Positions 27,281 through 63,626 of a stretch of 64,000 nucleotides of DNA are shown here, piece after piece. This stretch comes from Sistotremastrum niveocremeum HHB9708 (taxonomy: Eukaryota > Basidiomycota > Agaricomycetes > Sistotremastrales > Sistotremastraceae), in assembly GCA_001630475.1 (NCBI GenBank), contig KV419423.1:310001-374000 (forward strand), read 5' to 3'. Position numbers and translations under genes: made by a program. Under the pieces are notes generated by a model, which was given only the letters and a program-made list of their open reading frames with translations, had not been told where the DNA came from and searched no databases. Position 1 is the first letter of the stretch, and each line of letters starts with the position of its first letter.

Positions 27281-27828
27281 TTTGGTGACCGACGCAGGGG
27301 TAGGCAGGATAACCTCTGAATCCTCTTGCGCAGTCCCATTTCGCCTCAGTCTCTCAGTGATCAGTATTCACTCAAGCTTCAAGTCCCTCCTTCAGTACAG
27401 GAGGTTTATTAGTCAAAATCGTCGCCTCTACCCGTCAGTCAGGGAGACGCACTCGATCCCAGTTCAGTTCAAGCAACCCTCTTCCTATACTAGCCCTCCC
27501 CACGCCCAGACGGCGTGCCCAGACCAAGAAAACCGAAAAATCGAAAGCAGTTGCTACAGAAGCGACTACTTCTAGCTCGTCTTCGAGTGCCCTCACATCA
27601 CCGCCCCCTTCCCCTTCCGCTCCCCTTGCTCCAGTAGCAAGTATCACATCCCCTCATCGTTCCTCTTCGCCCCCACAGTTCTCAGGACCAGTTCCTGATT
27701 TTCTTCTAGATCCAGATCCCCTCTCTGCTCGTCGTCGAGCCCTAGCATCCCAAAACACTATTCCATCTCCAGTCTCGTCCTCACCACCTCGTCCTAGTAC
27801 TCCTCCTACTCCATCGCCTCCGATAACC

Positions 27829-30201: not shown

Positions 30202-30275
30202 GGCCGCCGGCGAAAGACGAAGTTTCAACATACCCAGTCACCTCAGAAACTCTCGTCAACACAAAATATAAGCCG

Positions 30276-33200: not shown

Positions 33201-33440
33201 ACCGATCTTGGTCGAAAATGGCTCCCTCGGTACCTTGGTCCCTATGTCGTTCTCTCCAGAAGCTCAGGCGGATCCTACACCCTTGCCGAGATGGACGGCA
33301 CTCCCTCCAAACTTCGCTTCGCTGCAAAGCGAATTATTCCTTATTTTCTTCGGCCAGGCACCATCATCCCTGACTCCACCACGCCAATCGACGAATCCAA
33401 TCTAGAGCCTTCAGACCCTGACAACGCGTCAGATTCGTGA
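30276..33440 (+). CDS. pol: Gypsy element Pol (RT, RNase H, integrase)
   Basis: Open frame of about 1050 codons in a different frame from gag. Reverse transcriptase has TTLPMGWTNA and the active-site string PFIDDVGMKGP; RNase H has VIFAVDSSYIAVGFIL; integrase has the HHCC zinc region ending CHECQKRK, then a core with HMDTMF, TDNGKP and a downstream Glu in GVIERQHRT. The C-terminal part looks like the small barrel common in Gypsy integrases. In this family Pol is normally made by read-through or frameshifting from Gag. Confidence 0.92.
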   Translation: MALKIRPVPTTLPENYKIIRKIPVDPLLSLPTLPTSQIPEFIPGVRLTLDRWLAIKSKLQKENFLWPQEIELIGWILRQDELGLAWDDSHKGQFRSDYFEDIKFPVVEHIPWSDRNMRIAPSMHDKLIIELKRKIATGVLEPSNSSYRSRWFTVLKKNGDLRIVLDAQKVNAITIQDRGTPPIVEEIIESFAGRTVYSLGDLYIGYDHRVIHPESRDFTTIQTPLGPFRYTTLPMGWTNAVTIFHQDVMFILQEEVPDKAQPFIDDVGMKGPQSYYYLPDGSFETIPGNSGIRRFIFEHLQDFHRIIWRILCAGGVFAVHKLIICTPEITLVGHTCNFYGRKPDYSHIKKILDWPIPSSLTEVRGFLGTMGLVRIFIKDFSKHASPLVALTRKDVEFVWGANQQLAFDFLKEAATSAPALKSLDYKSSNEVIFAVDSSYIAVGFILIQLDDKGKRHPVRFGSITWNDRESRYSQAKLELYGLARALKAFRLYLMGLPRFTVEIDAAYIKGMLNNPDEIPNATLNRWISYIQLFTFTLRHVPAERHQAPDGLSRRPLASEEEIDDPEDFEDLVDKKLEAFVFQRPTPLFILSTSTPEKPSPLIPRSKFAKRRDIEISFIRYYLENLKWPGEISQAQKLSLANQVSRYFIRDSSLYLRDITGQHRKYIPHADRIPLLKTAHDELGHRGFFPTQRLLSDRFFWPSLSDDIKWYLVTCHECQKRKELQLHIPPTVPTPASLFSKCHMDTMFMPAAGGFRYIAHARCSLSAWPEWRALRKENGDTLGRFIFEEVLCRWGSLSEIVTDNGKPWISAVDYLSKKHHINHIRISPYNSQAQGVIERQHRTIRESLVKACNGNLSKWPSVAAHIFWADRITTRKSTGHSPYFMAHGVEPVFPFDLAEATYLAPSLSEAVSTEDLIAIRARQLEKRPSDLQEMHDLIYRSRLESAEEFSKNFHSTIRQYDLPPGQLVLVRNSQAETDLGRKWLPRYLGPYVVLSRSSGGSYTLAEMDGTPSKLRFAAKRIIPYFLRPGTIIPDSTTPIDESNLEPSDPDNASDS

Positions 33441-36540: not shown

Positions 36541-37185
36541 TGGCACTCAGCGGACTTCTCCAGGATGGATGTTACGTACATCTTCGCAGATAAAATTCAT
36601 GCTTCGATGTCTCAATGGCAGAGTGGTGAACCCCACGAGGTCTGATAGCGTATCATTCTAGTACTTTTGGGGGGCTTCGATCGCGACGCGGCGACGTGTG
36701 TGAGAACAAAATACAATGGTCTTTACGAGAGTTAGGAAAGAACATCCAACAGATTGGCTGGTTGAGACATCTTCGGAGAATCTGAAGCGTGATAAGTGGT
36801 GCGCGAGGTTTCTGATCGATCGAGAAAGAAATCAACATACAGTTCTTTCGTCCTCTAGCTTCATGCGAACAGATTCGAAGTTAGACGTATGAATTTCTAT
36901 CGATTCACAAAAATGTCAGAAAGATATCTCCCGAAATGTCTCTTGAGAAGGACAGGTAGCTGTTCCGTAAGAGCGCAAAAGGTCAATAAAAAAATGAGTG
37001 GTGAGTGGTAGCCGAACAACAAGCGAGGCAAAAGGAGAACAATACAATCAGGAACAAACAAGAGCGCTCAACGCCCCTAACCGAATCCGGAAGCGAAGGT
37101 CGTCGAGGGCAGCGACCTCGAAATCCTTTATAATGTCAATGTTCCCATCACCCTTCGTATCCTCCTACCACCATCTCCCCCGCAC

Positions 37186-39420
37186 ATGTCATCCATCCAG
37201 CTCCCCCCTCTCCTTCAGGAAGACCCAGGGCCCGGGCACGAGCATCGTCCTCCTGGGCGGCTTGGGCCAATCACTTACCAGATTTTATTGGAGCCTAGTG
37301 TGAATGGGTGGTTATCTGGACCGCCGAATCCTTTCAGCGTGCCGACGCTGGAAGGTCGTCGTCCGATGTTGGAGATGCCCGAGTGGGTTGAGCTTAACCC
37401 ATTCGTTGCCTTTCAACGACCGTATCGAGCCACCCAGTCACCCACTCCCCACGAAAATCATGACATGACGAACCCTCCGTCAACCAACAGAACAACTGTA
37501 CAATCTTTTGCACAACGGTCTCTTGGCCGAACAGCAAGAAGCGTCTCGCCTTTGGAGTCTCAGGCAGATGCTGCCACAGGACCCCTTGCTCCGTCCTCGA
37601 GCTCTCAGGCCACTACTCGTCAGCACCATCCTTGGTCTTATATACACATGCACTCACCTCCGCAGCAGCCCCAACGCGCAAGAGGCGAGGCCGACAGCCG
37701 TACTATCGACGTGTGCCCGTCGAGGTATGTCCGATAACTGACCTTCACCGGGCCACAATGGCGCGGTTGTTGAGTCTTGTTTTCTGACTGCTTATATTTT
37801 CCCATGATTCATAGGCTTCTTGTCCCTCTCCTCCTGATACGCCGCAAGAAGACGGTCTACACCATTATCGGAATGCAGTGGCAGGTGAGCACAACTACTC
37901 CGGCTTTGTGATATTTTTGACAACTTATTTTTGACGACTTTGAAAGCCAAACGTCCTGCTCCTGAACCTACCGCCAGCGCCGCACTCGATCCGTCGGATC
38001 TATCCTTCCGACTCAATCTCAGCGATTGTCGACCAACTCGACCCAAAGTTGCCGAAGGCGAAAAAATTGTCCTCCACTTCGGAACCCCTCAGACGATATC
38101 CGTCTCCAAATTATATTTACAGGACTGCCGTGAGCGGGCATTCGAAATCTTTGCGACCAAGCTCGCTGGAATAGGAGCCGCTATTGAGAAGAAGTCAGTA
38201 CAATACATAGGTTATCTCTCAGAGCATCCGGATCTGCCACAATATGCTATCCCGAAGGCGAGGCTCGCGTTGCTCCTTTTGGTCATTTACTATGGCCATG
38301 CCAATCCTAGACCATTTGTGAGTCACTGTCCATCGATCTTATAATCGGTTTACACCTGACTTTCGCCTCTGCAGCCCGGAAACCCTTCGGGGTTGTCTGT
38401 CGACCCTCAGACGTTCGGCCAGTTCCTCATCGATGCGGCACAGAGTCTCCTCAATTCGCTAGACTGGGAAGTTATAAAGAGCGACCCCATCATTGGCATC
38501 AACCCCACGTACGTCCCGAAAAGCAAAGATCCTCAACATATTCTAGCTTAGAATGTCTGATCAAAACATCAGGTTGCTCTACGGCTATTACTGTTACGAG
38601 AACAAGGAGAATTGGCCCGCTTTCGAGCCTATTCTTAGGAAAGCGATTGCAGCGGATCGGCTTCCGATCTCAACAAAAATTTCACCAAAGAAGCGGCAGA
38701 AGGATTCATATGTCGCTGAAGGGGATCCTACAAGATTTCATAGTGGGAGTCGAGAGCAAGAGGTGCGTCCCATGCCATCCATGATACATCCGCAAAAGCT
38801 GAAATGAACTCGTCATAGATCCGGAGGAGGGCTTCATATGCACTCATCGTACTGGCGTCAATGGGGAATCTGAATCAGTACAAGATATCTCCTACTGAAC
38901 TGGAATTGCCTCCTCCGGTCGATCTACGCTACAAAGACATCGTACCCGGCAAGGATATCGCCGAAACTCTTGGAGAGTTGGGGGACGTATCCGACGTCAG
39001 CCTTCTCATCCTGAACGGGCGGATGGCCATCGCGAAAACCAAATTGGTGAGTCATAGTAGTGAGGATGACTTCAATTTCGCTCAACATGGATTGTTCAGC
39101 TCAACATTCTCAAACTATTCGTCAAGAGCAATGAGCCAATTGGCGCAAGCTGCATTTCGGGGACAGTTCTCCCTGCTATCACAGCCTACCTTACAGCGTC
39201 GCGAGCCGCTGTCACCTCGATATCGCAATATCGCTCCCCATCTTTCGAGACGGCGTTTACAGGGATCGAAGGACTGTTGCATATCAACGAGTAAGTTCAT
39301 CTGACACCATCCCTACCCCAGTATTCAACATTTCTCAGCCGCTTGCTTGATTTGCCAAATTTGATCACCCTCGTTAAACGGATTCCTCTCGTTAACTTCC
39401 TTCAGTCGAATAGCTATTGA
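37186..39420 (+). CDS. unrecognised protein family, paralogue 1 (inverted pair)
   Basis: About 500 residues. ATG 37186 starts MSSIQLPPLLQEDPGPGHEH, and a TTATAA box lies about 55 bases upstream. The N-terminal 150 residues are Pro/Ser-rich and disordered, with a basic patch APTRKRRGRQPYYRR. The rest looks folded and helical: CRERAFEIFATKLAGIGAAI, LALLLLVIYYGHANPRP, YYCYENKENWPAFEPIL, SLLILNGRMAIAKTKL, SCISGTVLPAITAYL, and a C-terminal LITLVKRIPLVNFLQSNSY. The last exon is reached by a 48-base intron (39291-39338); its 5' site overlaps an apparent TAA, which would otherwise end the protein at 39294. No domain is recognised. A homologue of the same exon layout lies inverted at 44835-47022. It is probably a lineage-specific family. 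Confidence 0.72.
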
Positions 39421-44156: not shown

Positions 44157-44452
44157 ATGCCTTTCTCCACTGGTACTATGGGTAACCTGAACGTCTCTGG
44201 CGCCAACCATGGCACCAACAACTTCGGTGATGGCAACACCAGCAACATCACTCACGACTCCCATAACACAAATAACTCGAAGCACGCCAATATTACCAGT
44301 ACGTGTATATAGTGTCACTTCGTCGATTTGCATTGAATTTCGATGTAGCGGGTAACGGCGGCAATGGATACGGCGGCCATAGCCACGGACGCAAGGGACA
44401 CGGTGGCCGCGGCGTCGGCGGAAGAGCCGGAGACGTTCATTTCAGCCAGTAA
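44157..44452 (+). CDS. small Asn/Gly-rich motif protein 1
   Basis: 82-residue peptide from two exons with a 50-base intron at 44299-44348. It begins MPFSTGTMGNLNVSGANHG, continues TNNFGDGNTSNITHDSHN, and has a Gly/His/Arg-rich C-terminus (GNGGNGYGGHSHGRKGHGGR) ending GDVHFSQ. Residues 15-42 carry the motif G-x-N-[YH]-G-x-N-N-[FLV]-G-[DN]-x-N shared by five genes in the next 11 kb. A paralogue with the same intron position lies at 51313. A TATATAAG box is about 65 bases upstream. No signal peptide. Asn/Gly density and repeated N-x-G spacing suggest a beta-forming, prion-like segment, but this is inference; no database family is known to me. Confidence 0.75.
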
Positions 44453-44834
44453 ACTGTAAGTGGTCTACCCCTGCATTGACGAGGACGGTGAACTGACAGT
44501 CATTCTGCCCCGATCTAGCAGACTGTTGTACGGAAAGCCAACATATGTAACCTGGCCTCCTTCGTTCTGTACTAGTTGTAGTCCAGGCCTGATGAAATAT
44601 GAATCTCGTTCGTGCGTCGTGGTTATTGGGATTATAAGGATGCAACGAAGGCGAAGTCAATATTTTTAATCAAAAATTGTCAGCGATCTGCGATGACAGT
44701 GGGCCCAAACATATTTTCATGCATGTCACTTTGCAGCCCAGTTGGATGGCACAAGAAACAGAGGCAATGACTAGAAGTGGTACACAGCAAAATCTCGGGT
44801 TTGCTTTTGAGGATCATTTTCGAAATTAGCTTGC

Positions 44835-47022
44835 TCAATATTTATCTGACATGAGAGCATCCACGAGAGGGAATCGCGCGACCAGCGAGATTAATCTCCG
44901 AACATCGAACGAGCTTAAGAGGCGGCAATTAGAGGGAGCCGGACTGTATCGGATGAACTTACCGAGATAGCTGTGCTACTTCCTTGACTTCCGTGAGCGC
45001 CTGCTCTTGGGACGGGAAGGTGTGTGTCGGAAGTGAAGCGAGAGCATCTCGCAATTCTGCGTAACAAACTTCTACGGCGGGAAGCACCGTCATGAAAATG
45101 CAACTGCGGCTAATTGGCCCTTTGCTCCTTGCGACCGATCTCAAAACATCGAGCTAATGATTCCCATTTGAGCTGGAGTCCCACGGAGTTCAACATTCAA
45201 GAGATATAACTTACCAGTCTGCTCTTTGCGATAGCCAGACGCCCGTTCATAATAAGAAGGCCTGCGTCAGATAATTCTTCCATTGCTTCGACAGTCTCGA
45301 GGATATGATTGTTCTCTTCGATATCCGTGTACCGTATATTGAGAGGAAGTGGCAACTCCAATTCAGCCGCGGAGATCTCGTAATGGGCTAGACTGCCCAG
45401 AGAAGCCAACACGATGAGAGCGAATGTAGCTCTCCTCCAAATCTATCATGGGCTCATGTTGGATTTTCCGTGCGGTGTCTAAGTGAGGTACACACCTGTT
45501 GTTTTAGACTGTTGGAGTGAAATAGTGTTGGATCTTCTCCAAGTGCATGTAGACTCTTCTTCTTCTCTGTTGACGTCGGACTTCGATCCGCGTTTATCGC
45601 CTTCGTAATAATTGGCTCAAATGCTGGCCACTTTTCTTGGTTCTCGAAGCAGTGAAAGCCGTAGAGCAATCTATCAAGCGGATCAGACATATTGGACCGT
45701 AAATCACACTGAAGACGCACATGGGATTGATGCCGAGTAAGGCGCTTTTGTTACTGATGCATCCCCAGTCCAGGTCCTTGAGCAGGTTGTGAGCCTCGTG
45801 AAGCAGAAGCTGAGCGAATGTCTGAGGTTCGACAGACAGCCCGGAAGGATTCGCAGGCTGTGTAGACAAGGTATGAGGGCACAAATACAATCTCGATAAA
45901 CAGTGACTTACAGATGGTCTGGGATTAATGTGTCCATAATATATGACCAAGAGAAGTAACGCTGTCCTCGCTTTGAGTGTCGCCAGCTTTGGTGGATCCC
46001 GGTGCGTCCAGAGATGGCTGGTGGGAAGCACAGAACGCTTTTCAATCGCTGCCCCTATTCCCGCGAGCTTCATCGGGAAGATTTCGAAGGCTCGCTCGCG
46101 ACAGTCCTCCAGATACGTCTTCGAAACAGATACAGCCGGATGAGTTCCGAGCGGTAGGACCGCCTTATCATTTCCAGTGGTTCGGGGTCGGCCATCGCTG
46201 AGCTTAAGTCGAGATGGAACCGCATGGATGCCTGTAGAGTTGTTGGTAGGTACAGGATGAGGACGTTTATCTTTCAATGCTTTTAGAGCATATTGGAGCT
46301 GTCAACAGGGAATGCTCACCTTGTGCTGAGTTCCTTCCTAGAGCGTATTCCTCTTCTGCTGATGCATGAGGCTGAGAGATGTGATTCACCTAGAGAATAG
46401 CAGATTAGAGAAGTCAGAAAACAGAGCTCAACAACGGCGCCATGGTGGCCCGGCGAAGGTGTCTTATCGGACTTACTTCGACAAGCTCGCGTGGCGGGTA
46501 CGGCTGATAACCTCGCCTCTTGCGAGTTGGGGCTACTACGGAGGTGAGAAAATGTGTATATAATCATGGAAAGTACTGACGAGTTGTGGCCTCAAAGCTC
46601 GAGGATGGACTGAGGGGTCCTGTGGCATCAGCCCGAGACTCCGGAGATGAGACGCTCTTCGCTGTTCGGCCAAAAGACCGATGCGCAAAGACTTGTGTAT
46701 TGGTTTTTGTGGTTGACGTGGGCCTTCTCCCGTCACGACAATCGGTGAGAGGAGGTGACTGGGTGGGTCGAGACGGTGGTCGAAATGCAACAAATGGGTT
46801 AACAGCGACCCACTCTGGCGTCTCCAATCTGGGACGACGACCTTCCTGCGTCGACACGCTGAAAGGGTTTGGCGGTCCAGATAACCACCCTTTCACACTA
46901 GGCTCCAATAAAATCTGGTAAGTGATTGGTCCGTGCGGCCCAGGAGGGCGATGCTCGTGCCCGGGCCCTGGGTCAAGCCCTGGGTCGTCCTGGAGGAGAG
47001 GGGCGAGCTGGATGGATGACAT
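44835..47022 (-). CDS. unrecognised protein family, paralogue 2 (inverted pair)
   Basis: Homologue of the plus-strand gene at 37186-39420, with matching exon order. It starts MSSIQLAPLLQDDPG at 47022; SFIMS-type sequence just upstream is also shared, so the promoters were duplicated as well. Shared blocks include HEHRPPGPHGPITYQILLEP, the basic APTRKRRGYQPYPPRE, CRERAFEIFPMKLAGIGAAI, LLLLVIYYGHINPRPS, LLIMNGRLAIAKSRL and SCIFMTVLPAVEVCY. The last exon (RSFDVRRLISLVARFPLVDA to the stop at 44835) follows an intron starting at the apparent TAA near 44959. The middle part has diverged more than the N-terminus. Function unknown. The frame appears intact. Confidence 0.7.
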
Positions 47023-47737
47023 GTGCGGGGGAGATGGTGGTAGGAGGATACAGAGGGTGATGGGACCGTCGACATTATAAAGGATTTCGAGGTCGCTGCC
47101 CTCGACGACCCTCGCTTCCGGATTCGGTTAGGGGCGTCGAGCGCTCTTGTTTGTTCCTGATTGTATTGTTCTCTTTTCGTGTCGCTTGTTGTTCGGTTGC
47201 CATTTTCACTTGTTGACTGATCCATTCTCTCTGTACTAAGGTGAAAGTCAACTTCGTTTTCTGAGTTTTTTTGGGAATAATGCTTCTCGCGTTTTTCTAT
47301 ATTGTCCCAGTTCAGACCTCTCCAGTCTTGGCCTCTACCCGGTACGATGAAACGACATCCTTGATTCAGCTCTTCACGATCGATCAGAAACCTCGTTAAC
47401 CACCACTCACCACTCTTCGGATTCTCCGAAGACGTCGCGACGAGCCATCTTCTTGGACGTTTTTTCCCCGATCTTTACAAAAGCTATCATACTTTTCTCA
47501 CACCAGCCGTCATCTAAGGACCCAAAATTATGGGCTGGCGCCTTGTCGAGCCTCGTGGAGCGCACCACTCTCCCGCTGAGTCCAAAAGTACCGGCCTCGC
47601 CGTTTTCAGGAATAAGACTACCCCAACAGAAGTCAAGACTTACCTCGACAGGCGTGCGGAGCTGTTTTCCTCGCCTCCTGCAGGTTATTATGATAGCGCG
47701 CTCACAATTGACAAACCAGAGGTCGACTCTGCGGATT

Positions 47738-47860
47738 TCATAGATCCTGCGGCATCTCCACGTTCTGCGAGCCTGAGAAGCTATTTGCTTTTCGGCCAGA
47801 GGACTGGTGCGCAATTGTTTGTTCATTGGTTCTATTGGTTGACATGTGAGCCTGTCTCGC
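47738..47860 (-). pseudogene. fragment of a third copy of the inverted-pair family
   Basis: A minus-strand frame reads STNRTNEQTIAHQSSGRK and continues KANSFSGSQN, closely resembling STNRTTVQSFAQRSLGRT plus ARSVSPLESQ of the gene at 37186 and the equivalent part of its paralogue. It ends soon after, and the surrounding 47.4-48.05 kb does not give the other conserved blocks. It is read as a tandem remnant lying directly upstream of paralogue 2. Confidence 0.55.
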
Positions 47861-48118
47861 CATGGTAATCTCGAAGAGAGAGCGGCGAGGTCGCAGTGCG
47901 CACTGAATGTGGCAGGATCTTTCAACACGTACAGGGAACAACAGTGACGTACGTGACTGGTCTCGAATCGACGAGACCATCGCCATGACTTCCAAAACTG
48001 CGACTAAGGAGTCCTGGACACATAAACAGTACATGCTAATATACAACGACGACCGCGATACCTGGAATGGAATGACAAAGCAGTGAACAAACCCTAGTAC
48101 AAGTGAAGAAAAGACCTT

Positions 48119-49001
48119 CTAGAAACCTAATTTAAGGCCGAATGAACCCAACAATGGCAGCCCAGCCCCAACGTTCAGGTTAAATAGACCATCATTGCGG
48201 TCCTCGCGGTAGCGGGCTTGGCGGTCAGGCGCTCGGTCGTGATAGAGATCACGAACCTCATGCCTTTGACTGTACCGAGGTCCCCGCCGATCATCCTCGT
48301 AGACATTATAGTCACGTCGAACGGAGCGTTCATGGTAGACGTCGTCTTCTTCGTCATCCTCAGCGTCGGCGTTGGATCGATTATCGTACCGAGGCCCCGA
48401 TTCATCGCTTTCGCCAACACTGGAGTCGTTATCTTCCTCGTCGCTGCGCCCGCGACCAGAACTCGAAGTTATCCTACGCCTGAAATTTCATGATCAGATG
48501 CGGTCTGCCCCATGCGAATCACGAGGCTTACTGTGGCGGGCGAGGATAATCTGCGCGTCTGTTCGATTGACTGACTTCACGATTGCTCGCGTATCTGTCG
48601 TCACGATATCTTCCGGAGCCGTCTGAGTGGCCGTTAAACGCGACAATGTGGTCGAATGGACAAAACGCACCACCGGAATGTTTGTGCTTCGAGATATATA
48701 CTTGCTTCGAGTTGTAAGTCCTGGCACCATCCCGCCAGTTCTCGATGTTCTTGATACGCTCCGAATTATCGACATTGGAAGAGTTATCGGAATTGTCAAT
48801 GTCGTGCGAGTCGTGTCTGATGTTCGTCCGATTGTTGTCTCCAAGATTGTTGGCACCATAGTTGGTCCCCAGATTGGTGTCTCCGCGACCATACCTCTCC
48901 TCCTGGACACTCGTACCGGCTGGATAGCCTGTTTGCTCGGGATAATAGTGATTGATTATCAGTGTGTTGGAGGTCGTTGGGACGGAAGGATAGCGATACA
49001 T
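48119..49001 (-). CDS. disordered protein with the shared Asn-rich motif
   Basis: About 277 residues in two exons, intron near 48481-48530. It starts MYRYPSVPTTSNTLIINHYY at 49001. The shared motif follows at about residues 44-72: GTNYGANNLGDNNRTNIRHD, then SHDIDNS. The remainder is strongly charged and disordered (Arg/Asp/Tyr-rich, for example EDDEEDDVYHERSVRRDYNV), closing with a short hydrophobic Gly/Leu tail LPLLGSFGLKLGF. The N-terminal string NTLIIN is also present in the next gene of the set (49442-50243), which supports common descent. No catalytic domain. It could be an adaptor or aggregation-prone signalling partner; this is inference. Confidence 0.72.
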
Positions 49002-49441
49002 TGTGGTTTTGCGTCTTTACGAGGGTCGTCTGAGTGACAAGAGAGTCGATAGGGACTGGCAAACTCTGTCGAGTAGACTTTCACTAGCTATAGCATACTC
49101 AGATCATCGCCCTTTGTCCTGAAGGTTAGGGTTCCTAGCACGATCCAACGGATCTGGGTAAATCAGATCATTGTCCATGAGGCTCCGATATGATCCAAGA
49201 ATACTCATTATCTATTGAAGCTTCGATGAATGAGATCGCGGATGATCTGAACTCAACCTTCATCTTTGCGACTCTCAAAACGCGACAATGAGTCCATCCG
49301 GGTTCATCACAATCGGCTACGCCCGAGTCAACTTGAAGGTCGTTGTAAACAATCGATCGCGATGCCGAGTTTCAATAGGTAATTTCCGAGACGGAGAAGG
49401 AGGACAGCAAGAGTCCATACAGCTTGAATCAACATCTAGAT

Positions 49442-50243
49442 TCAGCCTTGTACACCACCGTGCCGTGTCCGTTCGAGCCATTGATGCCCGTGATCGCTTC
49501 GATCACAAGTTACAATAACAGAATTTCTCGGACCGCGAACGAACTTCACGGGGCTATAGGGTCTAACAACATCCACCACTTTCACGACTCCATCGATGAC
49601 TTTGACGACCTTGATTACATTTCCCCGGCGGTCTGGGGACGTGGATGACTCCAAATCTCCAGAATCATTGAGATCGGAAGCAGACTTCGTCTTGCTCGTG
49701 GCGGTCACGTTGTCGGCCATCGGGGCGCTGGGTTTGCCAACAACGCCATCGGCATCAGAAGTATGAATGTTGGCCAAGCCAGGGATATCGGCGGCAGGAC
49801 CAATCAACTTTTGTCTGAGCGGGCATTTAGACGTCGACATGAATTGTATCGAATTTTAATCAACTTACTGACTGCGAGGATACCCCAAGCGTCTCTGCCC
49901 CTTACGAGGCTGAAAGTAATCGGCGCTCCCGTTGACTCCATTACCGCCTATTAAAATTGAGAGCAGACGCACATATATGAGACATTAGCTTACCACCGGA
50001 AGTTATATATGTCGGGCTATTATAGGTATTGCTTGAGTTATTCGTACTCTGCGAATGACTCGAATTGTCCGTGTCATGCGAGTCATTGCTGATGTTGGTC
50101 GTGTTGTGATCACCAAGATTATTGGCTCCGTAATTGCTTCCGAAAGTCAGATCCCCCGCTCCGCGACTGACAGCAGGGAAACCCCAGCCTTCGGGAATGT
50201 TTATGATAAGCGTATTGGACGGAGGAGGAGAAACAACGGCCAT
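49442..50243 (-). CDS. motif protein with Val/Lys-rich C-terminal region
   Basis: Starts MAVVSPPPSNTLIINIPEGW at 50243. The shared motif is GSNYGANNLGDHNTTNISND plus SHDTDNS at residues 35-61, followed by a Ser/Asn run. Exon 2 (from about 49947) reads GNGVNGSADYFQPRKGQRRL. Its apparent stop at 49865 overlaps a consensus GTAAGT; splicing 49868-49815 (54 bases, usual for this genome) joins in frame to a third exon, QKLIGPAADIPGLANIHTSD, ending at 49442. That exon contains VIKVVKVIDGVVKVVDVV, a strongly beta-prone repeat. Alternatively the third exon is a separate gene starting at ATG 49840, and the first protein is about 110 residues. Both forms are possible. Function unknown. Confidence 0.6.
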
Positions 50244-51270
50244 TGGAAAGGACTTTGCGCAGGGACCGTTATGAAAGTAAACCGCGAGAATTTATCATTC
50301 TATGCTCGACCATATTGCCCTGGCCCTATCATGAATCTCTTCTTCCCCTGGATCCAGTTGGAAAAGGGTTGCGACAGCTTTTCCGGGATAAGTTTATCAG
50401 ACCATCAGCGTTCATAGAATCTCAAGAGAATATTGCCAATCCCAGAATTAAATTATCGTAGAAGATTGAATAGAAAGCCTCGAGGTAAGTCAGACGTGTT
50501 GTCAGGTATTTACGAAGATGGTACCATTACATCGTTGCCTGCCACCGAGACCGAAAACCACGAGGACAGATAATCAACAGATGATTTAGGATCGGGATAC
50601 TGCGAGCCAGCCTTCACTGGCAGGCTCATTCGATTTGAATGTATGACACAACATGAGCAGAACACGCGTGAAACCGCAAGCCTTAGATGGAGAACATGCG
50701 AGTCGAGAATGAGACCGAGTAATGCAGAGATTAAAGACTCGAAACGGCGAACGCAAGCAGGAGAACCACTGAAGGCAAAAACGTCGTAAAAGATGGGGTC
50801 ATGATAGGGCGCTAATTAGGAAACTCCGACCGCGCCGACTTTCTTCTCTCGACGTCGATGCTCCTGCAACGGACTGAACTGCTACAAAAGCTCTGTTGTC
50901 TTTAAGAATATTTGGCCCATGAACACTAATACCTTCCTGTCATCGAACTTCTTCATTCAAATGTCTAGTTCCCTGTTAGTCATCATGAAATCGATGAGAT
51001 CTGTCGGGCTTCAAGCTTTCAAGTTTTGCAGTTTGGGCAGAGGGATCAACCAGCTGCCGAATATATCGATGGTCCGGTGTCAACGTTCTCCTTTGGAAAC
51101 TTGATGTTCTCTCTTGCCATGTCTATTAATGAAGCGCGGTCACAATCCATGCCGTACGACATGTCATCTAAGTTCATCGATGCATCAACTCCAGGCACCA
51201 GCGCTCAGATCTTTCCAGTCCTAGATTAGTAGAAAGCATTCCACGGTCCAAGGGCAAGACATAGGAACGT
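50244..51270. other. intergenic, no gene seen
   Basis: Promoter region for the divergent motif genes. A plus-strand frame near 51020-51228 reads DQPAAEYIDGPVSTFSFGNL and may be a remnant, but it has no supporting structure. Confidence 0.4.
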
Positions 51271-51312
51271 GTTATATACGACAGCAGTGAAGGAACTGCG
51301 TCCTCAGTCAAC

Positions 51313-51610
51313 ATGCCTTTCTCTACCGGCACTATGGGCGATCTCAACGTCTCTGGCCCTAACTATGGGGTTAACAACTTTGGTGATAACAACCAGTCTA
51401 ACATCACCAGAGACTCTCATAACGTTGACAACTCGAAGCGCACCACCATAAGAAGTACGTCAGTTGCGAATCTGTCTGACACCGCCACTAAGTTGTGTCC
51501 CTGTAGCCGGCAATGGAGGCAATGGCTACGGCGGTCATGCATACGGTCGCAAAGGACATGGTGGCCGCGGAGTGGGCGGCAGAGGTGGCGATGTCCATTT
51601 CAACCAATAA
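51313..51610 (+). CDS. small Asn/Gly-rich motif protein 2
   Basis: Paralogue of the 44157 gene: 81 residues in two exons, intron 51455-51506 at the same codon. It begins MPFSTGTMGDLNVSGPNYG, with VNNFGDNNQSNITRDSHN and VDNSKR; the second exon reads GNGGNGYGGHAYGRKGHGGR and ends GDVHFNQ. A TTATATAC box lies about 40 bases upstream. Both ends of the protein are kept between the two copies while spacer residues vary, which points to selection. Same orientation as the first copy, about 7 kb away, with two related longer genes between. Confidence 0.75.
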
Positions 51611-51965
51611 GCTCAAAGCCCTCATCCTTCCGCTCCATCGGTGAATATATATTATCAGTCTTCGCAATTCTCAACCTGATGATGTATCTAGATGATATCT
51701 CCCAGCCTCGCTTGAGATTAGATTGCATCGTTTGATTTGCGTTGTCTAAGAATGTCGGTTATGTTCCCTAGGTTGCAATAGAGCTTGATTTTTGCCTTTC
51801 CATCTCATCCGACGTGCGGGGACCAAGACTCTGTTATGCCGGTGGGAAGTGGGAGTAGCGCAGCAAGTATGTTCACGAAGAAATTACATGATCCAGAAAT
51901 ACAGAAAAGAGAGAAATATGGAAATGGTGTGAAAGAAAGTGGCCGCTGGTGTGTGTGTGTACCTC

Positions 51966-52805
51966 CTATGACGATGAATCGTTGTTCTTACCACACTGGT
52001 TAAGACCGGCTCCACAGAATCCCGCGATGATCAGATAAATAATCAGCTGTAGAAGGAATAAATGGCACGCGAAGACGAAAGCGCTTGAAAGGACATACAA
52101 TGCCAACACCTCCACTCAGCCACAGAATCTTTTGATTTCTCCAAAATTGTCGCCTTCTCTGAGCCCGTGCACCCCGACGGAAAGCCACAGCTTGAGTTGC
52201 CATGTTATCCGTCTTATCCACCAACAAGTCAATCCGTTCCCCTCGCGAAAGGATCTGTTCGACGTTGTGAACCATGATATCTTTCACCTGATTCAGCTCG
52301 TTCTGAGCATTTGTCAGAGCGTCTTTGCCAGCTTCATTAGGATTCTCATTAAACTCTTTCATAAGCTTCTCGAGTTTGTCGCCGTAAGTCAGCTGAAGAC
52401 CATGATGCGAGGATTCCGTCGAGAGGGCAGTAGAGGGTGGCAAGAGGGCTTGAAGTCGGGTAAGGAAGGTGAATGGTAGTCGACGTCCCACACTATCGTC
52501 AGCCATGACGAGGTAGACAACGCCTGACTCGGCGACATAATGGAATAGATATTGTTCCCATACATCTGAGGTTCCAGGATGAGCATGGTCACTTCAAATA
52601 GTTCTCTTTGGAGACACACAGGTCAATTTCGAATTATTGGGTGGAATCTTGGACAAGATAGTCTGCACGGCTATGACGAAATTGAGCCGCAGTCAACCAG
52701 GAACAAGCATAACGAACCTTGTGAGAAGTCTCGCTTGCCAGTACTCGATTCTACTAAGATAGTAGACGATTCTGCATTGGCAACCAATGCATGGATAAGA
52801 GACAT
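51966..52805 (-). CDS. R-SNARE of the VAMP7 type (longin, SNARE, TM)
   Basis: Vesicle SNARE for fusion at endosome, vacuole or plasma membrane. From ATG 52805 it reads MSLIHALVANAESSTILVE, then ILSKIPPNNSKLTYVWEQYL and FHYVAESGVVYLVMADD of the longin domain, a SNARE helix (EKLMKEFNENPNEAGKDAL, NQVKDIMVHNVEQILSRGER with the central Arg, IDLLVDKTDNM), basic RRGARAQRRRQFWRNQK and a C-terminal membrane helix (LIIYLIIAGFCGAGL). Four exons; introns near 52723-52679, 52635-52582 and 52097-52051. Length of about 230 residues fits VAMP7. The last residues NQCGKNNDSSS could instead be ended by another intron. It is divergent from the Sec61-beta gene. Confidence 0.9.
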
Positions 52806-52914
52806 TATGCGTAGAACCTCGTGTTTAGCAGCCGGGAGTGTTGGTGTGAAATTCAGGAGCGTAACACGGTGACACGTCACACTCCTCTTCGTCTAAACTT
52901 GCTGCCAGCGAACC
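52806..52914. promoter_or_regulatory. 109-bp bidirectional promoter, VAMP7 / Sec61-beta
   Basis: The start codons of the two divergent genes are 109 bases apart, so both 5' UTRs and promoters must share this stretch. It has no TATA box; GTGACACGTCAC (52869-52880), a near-palindromic CACGTCAC/GTGACACG site, is a candidate activator site in the middle. Confidence 0.6.
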
Positions 52915-53474
52915 ATGGTGAGTACTCGAAAGCCTTTGGGTCTTGCAGGTCTCTAATAATTTGCTGACAATGGTATTATCAACGACAGTCTGGCTCTAGT
53001 CGCCCCAGTTCACCTATTGCCAATGGTCGTGCGAGCCCTGCGGCGAGTGCAGTCGCAAAGCCTCCCGGAGCTCAGGTTCGGTGAGCCACTCAGCTATCTC
53101 TGTTCAAAACATGTTCTGATCATTCCATATGCCATCTTCTCCCTATTATCACCCTCCTTTTTGCCCCATCCTCCAATTTGACCTATCAATGAAAATCACA
53201 GACGACGTGCGACGGGCTCAAGCGTAGCTAAACCCAACTCTTCACGTGCTGCCGGAGCAGGAGGAAGCTCTAGCACAATGTTGCGTCTGTACACTGATGA
53301 CTCTCCTGGGCTCAGAATGTGCGTAACCCGTTGCTCCGTAAAGCTATAGCCGAACTGACTTATGAACACGTATGCAGTGATCCTTTCATTGTCATCGTCC
53401 TCTCGCTCTCTTTCATCGCCTCCATCTTCTTCCTTCACATCTCTGCCAAAATCATCCGCAACTTCTCAAAATAG
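52915..53474 (+). CDS. SBH1: Sec61-beta, ER translocon subunit
   Basis: Tail-anchored beta subunit of the Sec61 protein-conducting channel. Spliced from four exons it reads MSGSSRPSSPIANGRASPA, ASAVAKPPGAQVRRRATG, RAAGAGGSSSTMLRLYTDD, SPGLRIDPFIVIVLSLSF and IASIFFLHISAKIIRNFSK. The GAGGSSSTMLRLYTDDSPG block and the single C-terminal helix are diagnostic of Sec61-beta. About 100 residues, normal for the family. Unusually, exon 1 of the coding region is only the ATG: the first intron begins at 52918, directly after the start codon. A minus-strand open frame across exon 3 and 4 is only its shadow. Confidence 0.93.
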
Positions 53475-53905
53475 AGTAACGGATGCAAAAGGCGATCACA
53501 AGCACTGAATGTGCGGACTGAACGTCCCTTGGCTATAAATCAGCCCTTACCCACATGGATAACTTCTTAATTATGCAGCGTAAGCCAGGCTGTTGCTTGT
53601 ACCATCGATGCAGTTTGTCTGCATTCTCGTAATATATTTCGTCCATGTGACACTGTCCGGTCGTTTCAGACAAGCTACTCCTCGAGGTTCTCTGAGGTTC
53701 TCTCGTATCGTATCTCCGTGCATTCGCAGAGCTTCAAAACTAAAGCGATGGGACTACCGGACACACGATACCGCTAATATAACTTGACATCGAAAGATTT
53801 CGCCATCTCGAGCCACCCTATGACAACAGAGAGTTTTGACTTGATACCTTCCGGGATTGCCGTTGAGATCGAGCAGTCTTCTCCAGGTTCCTGCACAATC
53901 AGGGG

Positions 53906-55447
53906 TTAAATCACGGTCAGATTGTGAGCGAACCTTTCACGTACATTATCGGGAATCTCATCGATGATCGATTGGGCAATCTCTAATCCGTTCCAAACCC
54001 CTCTCATACAGGCAGCAGCATCGTCGAACCTCTGCCTTATGAATTCTAGGCTTTCTTTGGTAGCAAAGATCACCAGAGAGTCGACCCGGGATGCCTTCAC
54101 CTTGTAAGCTAAGGGCCACATAAGTACACACCTTCCAATGAAAATGAGAACGAAATCACCATCAAAACCAAGGGCTCTTATCAACTAACAACATTTATGA
54201 AATTTGTTAATGAACGTATATGGTAGCCCTCACCAAATGCAGCGTCTGAAATGGACTTGGTTAATAAACCTGGCTTGGTCTTGATAAAGTCATACCTGCT
54301 GAACACTTCTGTACAATGCATTTAGAAATGTCAAACAATGACTCGAAAATATAAATTCTATACCTAGTGAGATCTTGCAATAGAACATCGAGAAGTGCCG
54401 GAACTTCATCTACCGACACTGGTTCCATGGAGCTGTCAAGATTGGGAACTAGTTTGACCTTCTGCTCCAGGTTTGTGATGAGAGTCAGCACGTCGCTACC
54501 AGATTTTGAGAGAAACTGGTGGATTTCTTTGGAACTCTAGATGCTACTTTGATCTGTGCTGGGGAATAGAGAAGGTGGGAGACTTACGGCCATCATCTCT
54601 CGCACTACGATTCGGGCCCTTGATAGATCTAGCATGTTCTCTGGTTTGTCATCCAGTAGCCTGTTAAGATTCCCTTCCACTTCTACCCAAGGATAAGCTG
54701 GGTTGGTGCATCACGGAGAAATTGAGACATACCAGAAAGCGCGACTATAGATATCTGGGATGTAGCACTCATAGATGAAGACCAAGCCTTGAGTTCCTAA
54801 TGAGAAGTGACGTGAACAACTTGATCTGAACACCGAACGGCCAGGATATCTCTCCTCACATTATTGATGGAGTCATAATCCACAAGGATTATCTGTTCCC
54901 GAATTAGGGATTTATAACGCCACAACAGGTTTGGAACGCTGTTTGATACAACACGATTATTGTCGGCCAGATGTGATTCTGCATCCATGGGCAGGAGCCG
55001 TTCAGATGCCGGTTTGGACTCGGAAACATCTGGATCGTGCTGGGAGGAAGACTCGGAAGTTGGGAAGATCGATAGTCGGGCGTTTCTTGCAGTCTCTACA
55101 AGCTTTGACACTAGAAAATACAAAGAACTAGGACTTCGACAATCTGACTTGAGATGAGTTGGAGATCGAGGTGGTGATCATGGAGAGCACTCACCTGGAT
55201 TAGAAAACAGCGCTGGGACGCAAGAATAGTATTTATCTTCGATGACTATCGAGGCCTGGCCGATTATCATGGTTGAATGGTGAACGATGTTGGTAGTGTG
55301 AAGGTCCACGTTCACTCGTAGAGAGTTGTTTATGTTATCACAACCGTTGGCAATGTGGGTGTTATTGCTATTACCAACGTTATTTGCCCCATGGTTAAAT
55401 CCTGAAACAATCGCATTGGGATCGGCCTGACTGGTGGGGGGTGACAT
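53906..55447 (-). CDS. motif protein with a helical C-terminal region
   Basis: The ATG at 55447 gives MSPPTSQADPNAIVSGFNHG, running into the shared motif GFNHGANNVGNSNNTHIANG and NINNS, then DLHTTNIVHHSTMIIG. After an intron (from about 55194) come a Ser/Asp-rich linker and NLLWRYKSLIREQIILVDYD. Several further small exons are helical, for example VEGNLNRLLDDKPENMLDLS and LITNLEQKVKLVPNLD. The last exon reads FVLIFIGRCVLMWPLAYKVK and ends NVRERFAHNLTVI. About 430 residues in total; exon edges in 54.2-54.8 kb are uncertain. No known domain is recognised. The plan, an N-terminal motif followed by a helical body, resembles fungal effectors or receptors with amyloid motifs, but the resemblance is one of layout only. 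It lies next to a GTPase gene on the same strand. Confidence 0.6.
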
Positions 55448-55754: not shown

Positions 55755-58196
55755 CTACTCTGCATCACTCTGAAGAATCCTAAGTTTTTCTTTGAGTTGG
55801 GCAATGCTGTCCTCGATCCCTTGTATGGTGTCAGGATCCGTTTCCTTGCCCTTTATATTCTCAAGATTCATCTCGAGCACTTTGATCGCCTTGTAAAGCT
55901 GAGCCGAAAAGCTACCGGAGAGCGAAAGACTGGCATAAGCTTGAGCTTGAGTGCGAATCTCATTTGTGGCGTCAGCGAGCTCCGAATCCAATCTTTTGAT
56001 CTGCTTGCTGTGCCACGTTCTCATCCATTCGCCTCCACAGCGGTCAAGCAAAGCTTGCTTGAACTTTGCCTTTGCCTCTTCGTCAACAGCTCTCACTGCC
56101 TCCTTGTGTTCCTCCCATGTATAGTAGAAATGCCTATGGTCCCGGTACGAGTGTCCACATTTATTGCATGTGGTCTTTTTGCCGTCATCGAAGACCGTGC
56201 ATTTGAGGAGAGCTTTGGGATCGAGATGAAAATTGAGATTGCAAGACTCGTGGCAGTTCGAGTGGCATTGGGGATGAACGCAGAGAGTGTTGTAATCAGA
56301 TGTCTTCTGAGTCACCATGATAGACTGTGCCACAACCGATTCGTAGTTCCTGAGAGCGTTCAGATTCTGATGAGATAAGGTGAGTGCGATGGACACCGTG
56401 CAAGATTTTGGTCGCTTACTAGAGCTTTGTTCTCAAGATCACTTATCATGCGAGTCAGTTTCTTCTTCAATTCCGAGCGACGTAAGATCTTGGACATGGC
56501 TTCATGGAGCCGCATCTCTATGGCCTCGGATTTCTGGTAGAGGGACACGATCTCGTTCGTGGGCTGAGGCTTACAGTCCGCAGCCCAATTAAAGAAATCG
56601 ACGAACGCGTCCAACGCGTCGTTATGACTCGTGGCGACAGATGCCGTCAGACGTCTCAAAATCTTGGCGTCAGCCTTTCCTTCCCTTTTGATTTGAAGCA
56701 ATCTCTGCTGCATGGCGACGGGGTTGTCGAGAGAATATTGTGGAGCCTCGGCGAGCACCTTGGGTAAGGAATTCTTATCGAAGTTCCATGCAAGGGGCGT
56801 CGAGACATTGGTGAACATGAACGCGATGTTGGAAGCAAGAGATCGGGGAAAGATCGAAGACAGAACGGAAAGTGTATAATCGGTCGCGACACCGAGTCTC
56901 GGGAGTGTGCCGTTTGCAAGAATGAGGACGGCATTGACGAAGGGCATGTGAGCTTGAATAGTTTTGGCAATGTTGGCCTTATGTTCTTCGTCTTTGGCCA
57001 AGCCACGAGTATCGGCTAGACCGGGCGTGTCGAGGATATGGATCGTAATGCCATTATTGCTAACGAATTTGTAGACCTTGGCCGACATGGTCTGACTATG
57101 CTTGCCGGATAAACCAGACTCGTTGGCGGGATCGTAAACGGTTTCGTATTCCGACGGAGAATGGCCTTGGAGGATGTTGGAGATTAAGGAAAGAAGACTG
57201 GTCTTCCCTACACCGGTCTCTCCGACCAACATGATGCGGAGTTCTGTCTGGTCTCCAATAGTAAGGTTGCCCTCAGCCAAAGACTCGGCAACATTATTTT
57301 CGAGCACTTGAGCAGAGATTGACTCCTCAGGCTCTTCGATGGTCACGACGCCGTCTTCGGGTCCTTCCTCCACCGTCACCGTTCCACAAATAAGCGCCGA
57401 GGATTCGGCGTCGTCGGTATTGGAGGAACGAGCCGAAGCTGCACTGCGAGACCGGAAAAAGGAAGTGAGTGAGACGACAAACTGTGATCGATGAGAATCT
57501 TACCTAGATTGATTCCATGTGATATACCGTTGCTGATTGTCAAGACCTTTCGGAGCGTCATCCCAGTCGTCCTGGAACTCTACTCTTTTGAATTGTTGTC
57601 CATAGGTAGCGCCTAGTTGTGTGGATGCTTCAGGGACAACCACAACCCTCGCAGGAACGACCTGGGATGATGCTTCCATATCAACTTCAGTCCACTCCGA
57701 GCGATCTGCAGCGCCAGGCGACGTGTTCGTCTGGCGCGGCGCGGAGACCGCGCTGCCTTGAAACTTCGAATGTTCCCATTGTGATCTGTCCGTCAAGGGA
57801 ACTGAATAGTAGGGTTCGCTTCCAGGGAGCGTGCTTGCCGGCACGATGTATTTCTCTGACACTTCAGCTACAGAGGTTCGGACATCTCGGAGGCAAATCA
57901 CTCGTACCTGTTCGAGTATAAGCCGACACAATATTGGCTGATACGGTTTGGCTGAAGACTATGAAGCAGCTCAGATGTGAGCGACACAAAGCCAGACAGG
58001 ACAGACTGAACCTTCAGTTACTTCTTTCGTCCCTGCAAACAGAGAGAAATGTCAAATCAATGCGAATTCGAAAAGAAAAATCATACTGACCATTTATCGA
58101 GTCGCCAGAAACGATTCTAGTCTGCTTGGAATATGTTTGAGGCTTTCCGTTATAGTAAAAGGCTGGTGCCTCAAGCAGAGCGGTGGTCGCAGTCAT
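55755..58196 (-). CDS. GIMAP/AIG1-like GTPase with Cys/His-rich tail, copy 1
   Basis: About 690 residues. The start MTATTALLEAPAFYYNGKP is followed by a low-complexity N-terminal region of about 240 residues. The G domain has P-loop IMLVGETGVGKTSLLSLI, switch/Walker B HILDTPGLADTRG, and FVNAVLILANGTLPRLGV with NIAFMFTNVSTPL. A helical stretch (RLHEAMSKILRRSELKKKL) leads to a Cys/His-rich segment, CVHPQCHSNCHESCNL and CNKCGHSYRDHRHFYYTWEE, and a C-terminal coiled coil (IEDSIAQLKEKLRILQ). GETGVGKT plus DTPG fits the TRAFAC GTPases near AIG1/GIMAP and septins. A paralogue lies at 61205-63626. Such genes are common in mushroom genomes and mostly uncharacterised. All G-domain motifs are intact. 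Confidence 0.82.
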
Positions 58197-61204: not shown

Positions 61205-63626
61205 ATGTCCTCCACCGCTGTATCAGTCAAGGGTACCAATTTTCCACGTGCCCCCCGAGGAGTCGATAAATCTGGCGACAGTAACCTATCCTTAATCACT
61301 ACTAAGGATTCGCCTGTTGTTGAACCACCCCCTTGGGCCCTTAAATTTAGCAAACGTTTCCTTACTAATGAGGGTAAGTAGTGAACTTGCTCTCTGACCG
61401 TCAAGCTTCTTTCTAACGCTCGTTCATGTTGATAGGCAGAAAGTTTATGAACAGGCGTTGAGTATCATGAAATGAGCATCGCCCATGTATCCTTAACATA
61501 TACTAGTTCACTTGCCATCTGGCTCAACACATGGTGATTCGTCCATCAGCCTGTTGGGGAAGCGCGTTGATTCAGGTGAGAAGACGCTGGAAGGCTCCAA
61601 ACATTCCAGCATGCAAAATATCTGACAATCATTCAGTTTTTTCCGCTGAACCTAGCAGTGCGGAGGTTTTCTGGTCAGGAAGGCCAGAATTTCCGCCACC
61701 TGCAATCTTTGCTTTACCAGGTGAAAGTGACGCGCCACATCCTCCAACACTTTGGCCCTTCGATCAGTTGTGTTCCTTTTACGAAGTAGCTGACGAAACA
61801 GACTTGGATGCCGACATGCCCTACGTCGGTGATATCCCGTTGCATGTCGATAGCGGGTGAGACGATTACAGTCTACCACAGAATCTTCGTACTCACGATT
61901 TCATGACTACACAGCATAATAGCCCCTTCAATGCCAAAACTTAATACCGTCAACGCATTACGTCGCGGTCACATCGAAATAGGAGCCCACCAATCAGAAC
62001 TTTGCATCATGTTGGTGGGAGAAACCGGAGTTGGCAAAACCAGCATGCTATCTCTCCTCGGGAACATCCTTCAAGGCACTCCTCCGGGAGATTTTCGATC
62101 AGTACACGATCTTGCAAACGAATCTGGGATGCCAGATAAGCACACTCAAACCATGTCAGCGAAGGTATACGAGTTTCATAGCCTGAATGGGGTCAAAGTC
62201 CGGATACTCGACACCCCTGGTCTGGCAGACACTCGGGGCATAGCAAAGGATGAAGAGCATAAAGCTAATATCGCGAAGATTATACAGGCTCACATCCCCT
62301 TTGTCACGGCTGTCATCATTCTTGCCAACGGCACCCAACCCCGGCTCGGCGTTGTGACAGACTATACACTTCATACACTTTCCTCCATTTTTCCCCGTTC
62401 TCTCGCTTCAAACATAGGCTTTATGTTTACCAATGTTGCGAGTCGACTCTCCTGGAACTTCGATCTTACATCCTTGCCGGACATACTTCTCAAGGCCAAG
62501 GCTCCTCGCTTTCTGCTCGATAACCCGATTTCGCAGCAGCAAAAATTGCGTATCTTGCAGGACCAGAATACCCCATCAGATCAAATCGCTGAACTAGAAC
62601 CGCTAGTGACCTACAGCTACGAGCAGGCTCTAAAGACAATCTGCGAGTTTTCAACTGGATTGGTCAATGCCAGCCCCAACCTACTAAGGACATTGTCACA
62701 CTCTACAAAAAATCTGAAGATATAGAGAGAAGGTTGAAAAATGCGATAGCAGGGATAGAACAACGGGTCGAGATGAAGAAGCAGTTGAATCAGATGATTA
62801 CTGATCTCGAGAATGGAACAACGGTCAGTACCTGCCTTTCGACTCTGGCAGCCAAGCTGATTCGTTGGCGTCGTAGACCATGGAAACATACAAGGATTAC
62901 GAGACCATTGTTACCCAATCCAACTGGGAGCTCGCAAAGGATTCAAGCCACAATACTCTCTGCTTCTATCCTCAATGTTATACCACTTGTCATCCCTCAT
63001 GCAGCCTCCCGTTTTTCTTCAGATCTCGTCGTCTCTACTTGTGCTCCGCATTTGGTCGCCAGAAAAAAGCTAAATGCCGAGCTTGCGACCATCTGTATTC
63101 AGAGCATCGTTACACGCGCTCAACCTGGAAGGAATTAAAGGAGGAGGTGACTGAGGTTGATATGGAGGCAAAGAAAAAATTCGAGCAGGCCCTGAACCAT
63201 CATCAAAGAACGGAAGTGTTGAAGCAGCAACTTGATAGCAAAATTAGCCAAATTGACGCACAAACGAGCTCCGCAACAGCAGAAATCCGTGAGCTGGCGC
63301 AATCGTATGCTGGTCTCTCTCTTTGCGGCTCGTTTTCATCCCAGTTGCACAAAGCGATCAAGCTGCTCGAGGTGCATCTTCAAGCCTTTCGAGAGAGAGG
63401 GGTGGACTTCGCTGTCGTTCGAAGTGTTGAGGACGGCATCGAAAAACTGGCATTGAAACTCAAGATCTTGGAAGGCACGACGTCTGCATTGGCATCAACG
63501 GCAGTCATACGGTTTCCGGATGCCAGTACTAACTCCCAGCATCAGCTGCCTCCCTATACCCCCACTAGTATTAATACTACTGATAGTCGACGAGTCATGC
63601 TGGATACCTCTACTACATCACGCTAG
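61205..63626 (+). CDS. GIMAP/AIG1-like GTPase with Cys/His-rich tail, copy 2
   Basis: Paralogue of the GTPase at 55755-58196. Exon 1 from ATG 61205 reads MSSTAVSVKGTNFPRAPRG. Exon 2 (61637-61858) is Pro-rich, with VFWSGRPEFPPPAIFALPG. The G-domain exon (from about 61929) has IMLVGETGVGKTSMLSLLG, RILDTPGLADTRGIAKDEE and NIGFMFTNVASRL. The frame is shifted by one base near 62650: the text leaves ICEFSTGL, and the neighbouring frame carries the homologous QPQPTKDIVTLYKKSED, so this copy may be a pseudogene or contain a sequence error. The last exon has CFYPQCYTTCHPSCSL and CRACDHLYSEHRYTRSTWKE, a coiled coil and a Ser/Thr-rich tail ending DTSTTSR. The N-terminal region is shorter than in copy 1. 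Confidence 0.75.

What the first reader, a model, noticed from the sequence alone, without database searches (positions are those of the whole stretch)
44157..55447. Five clustered genes share an Asn/Gly motif: candidate new prion-like signalling set
Genes at 44157 (+), 48119-49001 (-), 49442-50243 (-), 51313 (+) and 53906-55447 (-) all encode G-x-N-[YH]-G-x-N-N-[FLV]-G-[DN]-x-N followed by [TS]-[NH]-I and, in four of them, D-S-H-x-x-[DN]-N-S. Outside the motif the proteins differ: two are tiny paralogues, two are longer and disordered, one has a helical body. A short motif shared by otherwise different neighbouring genes is the hallmark of fungal amyloid signalling (HET-s/NWD2-type pairs in Podospora). 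The regular N-x-G spacing would suit a beta-stacked fold. The motif is not HET-s, PP or RHIM-like as far as I can judge. Function as amyloid is inference; the shared motif and clustering are seen.
Basis: partly seen in the sequence, partly recalled or inferred. Interest (0 to 1): 0.82.

Follow-up and report, generated by a model that had tools for sequence, protein, structure and literature searches.

The report
Shared N-terminal tag on fungal GTPase cluster
A fungus carries a cluster of otherwise different genes that all begin with the same short asparagine/glycine tag, and one of them is probably a GTP-driven switch protein, so the tag may be the plug by which the switch gathers its partners; this is untested at the bench.

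Summary
The five motif copies are real and not low complexity (leave-one-out profile 26.6-67.8 bits; best shuffles 5.9-15.0). Seven genome searches found nine copies: seven in 26 kb of this contig, two elsewhere. In my models all nine motifs lie in a first coding exon ending in phase 1, before different bodies. Between the species that motif is 37/37 identical, the linker 104 of 146 aligned residues, the GTPase part 293/311.

The HET-s/NWD2 reading is only partly supported: none of 57 NACHT matches is on the motif contigs, no effector domain was seen in the bodies scanned, the PP pattern is not met, and amyloid formation is untested. Best explanation (0.5): a lineage-specific N-terminal recruitment module shared by a GTPase switch and client proteins, resembling bacterial "effector-associated domains". 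A GTPase-gated amyloid is the boldest reading left (0.2).

The parts
44157..44452 (+). Gene A, 81 aa; exons 44157-44298, 44349-44452; motif core 44199-44237; Gly-rich tail
   Evidence: paralogue of D, dN 0.16 / dS 1.47
48119..49001 (-). Gene B, 260 aa; exons 49001-48671, 48622-48532, 48479-48119; motif core 48869-48831; charged body, disordered by eye
   Evidence: no Pfam match
49442..50243 (-). Gene C, 233 aa; exons 50243-49994, 49947-49869, 49814-49442; motif core 50141-50103
   Evidence: Sistotremastrum suecicum relative P0004 matches exon 1 and a read-through of intron 1 at 98%
51313..51610 (+). Gene D, 81 aa; exons 51313-51454, 51507-51610; motif core 51355-51393
53906..55447 (-). Gene E, 379 aa in an 8-exon model; motif core 55402-55364; body helical by eye, with a relative on contig C13 that shows no motif in the sequence held
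   Evidence: no transcript support, short middle exons uncertain
55755..58196 (-). AIG1/GIMAP-type GTPase 1; modelled first exon (58196-58091) ends in phase 1; no recognisable motif
   Evidence: Pfam AIG1 34.8 bits, cut-off 27; models; S. suecicum relative P0005
61205..63626 (+). AIG1/GIMAP-type GTPase 2; modelled first exon 61205-61373 (phase 1) with a weak motif-like stretch; reading frame broken near 62650
   Evidence: Pfam AIG1 27.9 bits; 6.1-bit motif match, E 4.7 among 8822 ORFs; as a query this exon does not find the motif genes; frame switch

Best explanation
The motif is an N-terminal recruitment module, lineage-specific as far as the database shows, carried on a phase-1 first exon before different bodies. 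One carrier is a GIMAP/AIG1-type GTPase that acts as the switch. When it binds GTP and dimerises or oligomerises, as described for relatives of this family, its N-terminal motifs are brought together and gather the other motif proteins (A, B, C, D, E, F, H, I) by motif-motif contact: an analogue of the bacterial effector-associated-domain principle or of fungal NLR signalosomes, with a GTPase in place of the NLR. SHOWN: shared motif, common first-exon structure in the models, clustering with the GTPases, an annotated motif-GTPase fusion in a second species and a matching in-frame path here. INFERRED: that the motif binds itself, that GTP controls it, that the clients are effectors or regulators, and any link to non-self recognition or cell death. 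Whether the assembly is amyloid is left open.
For: Nine motif copies found in the genome by protein queries, 7 of 9 within 26.3 kb. 9 of 9 modelled first exons end in phase 1. S. suecicum protein P0007 (546 aa) carries the motif at its N-terminus and the GTPase behind it; in this genome the same stretch joins in frame through GT-AG introns, L011 6359-6590, 6758-6796, 6847-6991, 7050-8166. The 3 GTPase genes found by similarity to GTPase 1 all lie in the cluster. Against the genome, without a gene model, P0007 is identical at 37/37 motif residues, 37/41 of the rest of exon 1, 104 of 146 aligned linker residues (11 of 157 unaligned) and 293/311 of the GTPase part. A and D are under purifying selection, dN/dS about 0.11. 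The GTPase model matches GIMAP7, GIMAP2 and Toc34. The E body has a relative without the motif in the sequence held. A review describes GTP-induced dimers and possible scaffolds of GIMAPs (PMC8201404, passages); one copy on the NTPase and the rest on distinct effectors is a reported bacterial EAD layout (PMC8195603, passage).
Against: No self-interaction data. Only the GTPase has a recognisable domain; the other bodies scanned match no known effector. Of the three GTPases one has the motif clearly, one at best weakly and with a broken frame, one not. Among 124 database proteins scanned, 119 lack the motif, including 119 of the 120 GTPases listed (of 350 found), many of them cut at the N-terminus. 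The exact exon 2 of the fusion gene is uncertain here. The motif exon has no predicted structure. A shared exon can also arise by plain duplication followed by loss of the old body.
Confidence: 0.5

Rival explanations
1. An ordinary fast-evolving paralogous family. The first exon with its promoter is the retained part of an ancestral gene (perhaps the motif-GTPase itself), copied in tandem and joined to new 3' parts. The motif binds one common target or places the proteins in the cell, and the proteins do not bind each other.
For: Same phase-1 exon end in 9 of 9; A/D are full-length paralogues, H/I share exon 1 and a 31%-identical body, B/C resemble each other in exon 1; GTPase 2 may have a decayed motif in the same exon position.
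Against: The motif is kept better than the GTPase linker (37/37 against 104/146) although most bodies differ; two copies lie on other contigs.
Confidence: 0.27
2. HET-s/NWD2-type amyloid signalling: NLR with N-terminal motif plus pore-forming effector with C-terminal motif.
For: Short N/G motif, clustering, no predicted structure of the monomer; amyloid-like motifs at NLR N-termini are reported for Agaricomycetes (PMC9815663, sections 19 and 28 read).
Against: None of 57 NACHT matches on C30, C7 or C37; no motif match better than E 0.67 in the 30 scanned loci; no HeLo, Goodbye or other effector domain in the bodies scanned; motif N-terminal in 9 of 9; PP pattern absent in 9 of 9. NB-ARC genes were not searched, and NACHT genes with an N-terminus more than 1.5 kb from the domain were not covered.
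Confidence: 0.05
3. RNA-binding or condensate-forming proteins: Asn/Gly-rich heads with Gly/Arg-rich (A, D) or charged (B) tails that phase-separate around RNA, unrelated to the GTPases next door.
For: Tails of A and D are Gly/Arg-rich and strongly constrained (tail dN 0.07, dS 2.0).
Against: Does not explain the motif on a GTPase nor the clustering with the three GTPases found.
Confidence: 0.1
4. Largely relics: a decaying cluster in which few copies still work.
For: GTPase 2 has a broken frame; GTPase 1 has no clear motif; exon 2 of the fusion gene differs from the S. suecicum model, and the nearest acceptor gives stops here.
Against: A/D dN/dS about 0.11, with dS near saturation; 37/37 identity of the fused motif between species; open frames for A-D.
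Confidence: 0.08

Closest known systems
Effector-associated domains (EADs) of bacterial conflict systems (PMC7159879, passages read; PMC8195603, section 5 and passages read)
   Same: Small non-catalytic terminal module in several copies in one locus, one fused to an NTPase switch, others to different bodies; some of those systems use GTPases of the septin/GIMAP-like clade as switches or an AIG-type GTPase as an effector domain
   Different: Fungal; an Asn/Gly motif of about 30 residues without predicted structure, where most EADs are folded helical domains; bodies match no known effector; no relative of the motif confirmed in one pattern scan of 84,980 prokaryote genomes
Fungal NLR amyloid signalling motifs: HRAM (HET-s/NWD2), PP, sigma, PUASM and the agaricomycete NLR05/08/22/29/44 group (PMC9815663)
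   Same: Short motif at the very N-terminus, neighbouring genes
   Different: The recognisable carrier is a GTPase, not an NLR; no C-terminal copy found; PP pattern not met; the published profiles of the agaricomycete group, HRAM and sigma were not available to compare
GIMAP/AIG1/Toc34 GTPases
   Same: Pfam AIG1 above cut-off for GTPases 1 and 2; Foldseek ranks GIMAP7, GIMAP2 and Toc34 first; VIA-align ranks Toc34/Toc33 first, with GIMAP2 tied with mitofusin and EF-Tu
   Different: N-terminal motif exon and long linker on the fusion GTPase, which scores below the AIG1 cut-off (18.1 against 27) but above that of MMR_HSR1 (22.7 against 21.9)

Membership tests
HET-s/NWD2-type amyloid signalling pair | NLR (NACHT or NB-ARC) with the motif at its N-terminus, encoded nearby | tested here: not met
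   0 of 57 NACHT matches on the motif contigs; in 30 of 57 NACHT loci scanned no motif match better than E 0.67. NB-ARC not searched.
HET-s/NWD2-type amyloid signalling pair | Adjacent effector with HeLo-like or other known domain and C-terminal motif | tested here: not met
   Motif N-terminal in 9 of 9; no Pfam effector domain in the bodies scanned (D, B, C, E, part of F, H, I)
HET-s/NWD2-type amyloid signalling pair | Motif forms templating amyloid | not testable with these tools
   Needs fibre and seeding assays
PP motif (RHIM-related) | Core pattern NxGxQxGxN (as given in PMC9815663) | tested here: not met
   0 of 9 motif sequences; a recalled RHIM-type tetrad pattern also 0 of 9
Agaricomycete NLR05/08/22/29/44 motif group, HRAM and sigma | Match to the published motif profiles | not tested
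   Profiles are in figures and supplements that I could not read
AIG1/GIMAP GTPases | Sequence match above the curated cut-off | tested here: met
   GTPase 1 34.8 and GTPase 2 27.9 bits, cut-off 27; the fusion protein P0007 18.1, below it
AIG1/GIMAP GTPases | GTPase fold with P-loop and DTPG | tested here: met
EAD-type system | Several copies of a terminal module, one on an NTPase, others on different bodies, in one locus | tested here: met
   7 of 9 copies in 26.3 kb, one joined in frame to a GTPase in my model and in the S. suecicum annotation
EAD-type system | Homotypic interaction; bodies are effectors | not testable with these tools
   No recognised effector domain in the bodies scanned

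The most novel reading that the evidence does not exclude
A GTPase-gated amyloid signalosome in basidiomycetes: GTP-driven oligomerisation of a GIMAP-like GTPase templates a new Asn/Gly amyloid motif, which is then propagated to several partner proteins from the same cluster. This would be amyloid signalling without an NLR, with a motif outside the patterns tested here.
Probability: 0.2. Interest if true: 0.85.

Novelty: new variant of a known kind. Interest (0 to 1): 0.58.

Why it matters
If the motif does mediate homotypic assembly, it would place GIMAP/AIG1 GTPases, linked to immunity in animals and plants, in the role that NLRs play in fungal signalosomes, and would be a fungal case of the architecture described for bacterial effector-associated domains. 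It also gives a compact testable set: one switch, eight tagged partners, invariant Gly/Asn positions to mutate. Relatives of this GTPase are many (350 database hits; the named ones among the 120 shown are mushroom-forming fungi, taxonomy recalled), yet two full-text searches pairing AIG1 with Basidiomycota or Agaricomycetes gave one paper, unrelated by its title, and none.

Tried and rejected
Rejected: (1) generic low complexity - shuffles score far lower. (2) Only full-length tandem duplicates - true for A/D, not for the set. (3) NLR partner nearby - none by NACHT search. (4) Solved-structure relatives by sequence - none for the motif profile (E up to 10) nor for P0007 (E up to 0.001); gene E gave one weak hit (E 0.09). 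(5) Bacterial relatives of the motif - 19 pattern stretches, none confirmed. (6) The first protein search with gene D alone found nothing; the nine-sequence profile found four proteins among 328 candidates. (7) For the fusion gene, the acceptor nearest to the S. suecicum one gives stop codons in this genome; a longer first intron gives an open frame; my scored path search listed other in-frame paths and not this one. So exon 2 here is uncertain. (8) The folded motif exon gave no structure. (9) The literature search was too broad to inform. (10) A first linker identity of 90/157 came partly from my gene model; I replaced it by a model-free count.

Weak points: gene models have no transcript evidence. 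Genome searches start from shared words, so more distant motif copies or GTPases may be missed; the AIG1 family profile itself was not run on the whole genome. The GTPase 2 motif was first seen by eye and then scored; two unrelated ORFs score as high or higher (L047 8.8 bits, L013 6.1 bits), and the exon as a query finds no motif gene. dN/dS could not be computed for B/C and H/I (synonymous distance undefined). P0001 and P0002 are unnamed near-identical fragments and not independent species evidence.
Full report
OBSERVATION. The five motif copies are present at the stated places. The strict pattern occurs five times in six frames of the window and never in 30 shuffles. A profile built without the tested copy, and without its partner for the pairs A/D, B/C and H/I, still finds that copy at 26.6 to 67.8 bits, against 5.9 to 15.0 for the best of 500 shuffles of the same residues. 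It is therefore a conserved sequence and not composition.

GENES. The genes are spliced; all models are mine, without transcripts. A (44157) and D (51313) are 81-residue paralogues: motif exon plus Gly-rich tail. B and C share the start of exon 1 and the motif, then differ. E has the motif exon followed by about 295 residues that look helical by eye, in an eight-exon model. A relative of the E body, covering residues 169-279 and 319-376 in order, lies on contig C13, with no motif in the roughly 770 bases held upstream of the match. That fits a motif that is separable from its body, but the upstream stretch is short.

MORE COPIES. The window is part of a 34.7-Mb genome in 111 contigs. Seven protein queries (genes or exons of D, I, E, F, C and G, and the GTPase 2 exon) found four more motif genes: F and G just past the window end on the same contig (window equivalents 64247 and 70359), H on C7 and I on C37. 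The E exon found only itself and the GTPase 2 exon found no motif gene. In the nine models the start codon and motif lie in one first coding exon that ends in phase 1 (about 1 in 20,000 if phases were random and the genes independent, which paralogues are not). For gene I only the donor was placed.

RELATIVES. In the 5.8-billion-protein database the motif was found only in S. suecicum (P0003, P0004, P0007) and in two near-identical unnamed fragments (P0001, P0002); the search needs shared five-residue words. P0004 (relative of gene C) and P0005 (relative of GTPase 1) both list a contig of 38,880 bases, so the clustering probably holds there; this is inferred from the equal contig length. The window species is thus probably a close relative of S. 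suecicum, an agaricomycete; the species itself is inferred. Of the 120 GTPases listed (of 350), only P0007 has the motif, though many are cut at the N-terminus. No prokaryotic relative of the motif was confirmed.

AMYLOID READING. Nothing here tests fibre formation. Against a HET-s/NWD2 pair: no NACHT match on the motif contigs (0 of 57), no motif match better than E 0.67 in the 30 of 57 NACHT loci scanned, no effector domain in the bodies scanned, and no C-terminal motif. The PP pattern is not met. The motif exon has no predicted structure as a monomer (pLDDT 47), which is uninformative for an amyloid motif. In the four motif segments measured, Asn+Gln make up 21-30% and hydrophobic residues 14-28%.

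MECHANISM. The best-supported reading is a recruitment module shared by a GTP switch and its clients. GTP-induced dimers and possible membrane scaffolds are described for GIMAPs (PMC8201404, passages). Bacterial conflict systems can have the same layout: one copy of a small module at the N-terminus of an NTPase and the others on distinct effectors (PMC8195603); GTPase switches of the septin/GIMAP-like clade are named there, and AIG-type GTPases occur as effector domains in related systems (PMC7159879, passage). The steps from layout to function are inference.

LITERATURE SEEN. PMC9815663: outline, passages, sections 19 and 28. PMC8195603: section 5 and passages. PMC7159879, PMC7889193 and PMC8201404: passages. 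PMC4344463: search listing only. No paper on this cluster turned up in the searches (10 of 28 listed; 8 of 13 listed) and 90, judged from the listings.

Noticed in passing
window 36735-38942 and 45319-47467: Two inverted copies of a roughly 2.2-kb stretch, 69.5% identical, flank gene A; each holds an open frame of similar sequence.
   Followed up: partly
window 27361-33437 (+): Long open frames that look like a gag-pol retrotransposon on the gene-A side of the cluster (by eye only).
   Followed up: no
window 52003-52593 (-): A synaptobrevin/longin (VAMP-like) gene sits between motif genes D and E.
   Followed up: partly
C7:373297 and C37:267123 (L015/L016, L017/L018): Bodies of motif genes H and I are Thr/Val-rich behind a disordered-looking stretch; 31% identical to each other over 93-271, otherwise only an E 0.12 match in the genome and no Pfam match.
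   Followed up: partly
whole genome, e.g. C43, C52, C11, C20: 57 NACHT matches, 52 above the curated cut-off, several in runs on the same contig: a sizeable NLR set.
   Followed up: no
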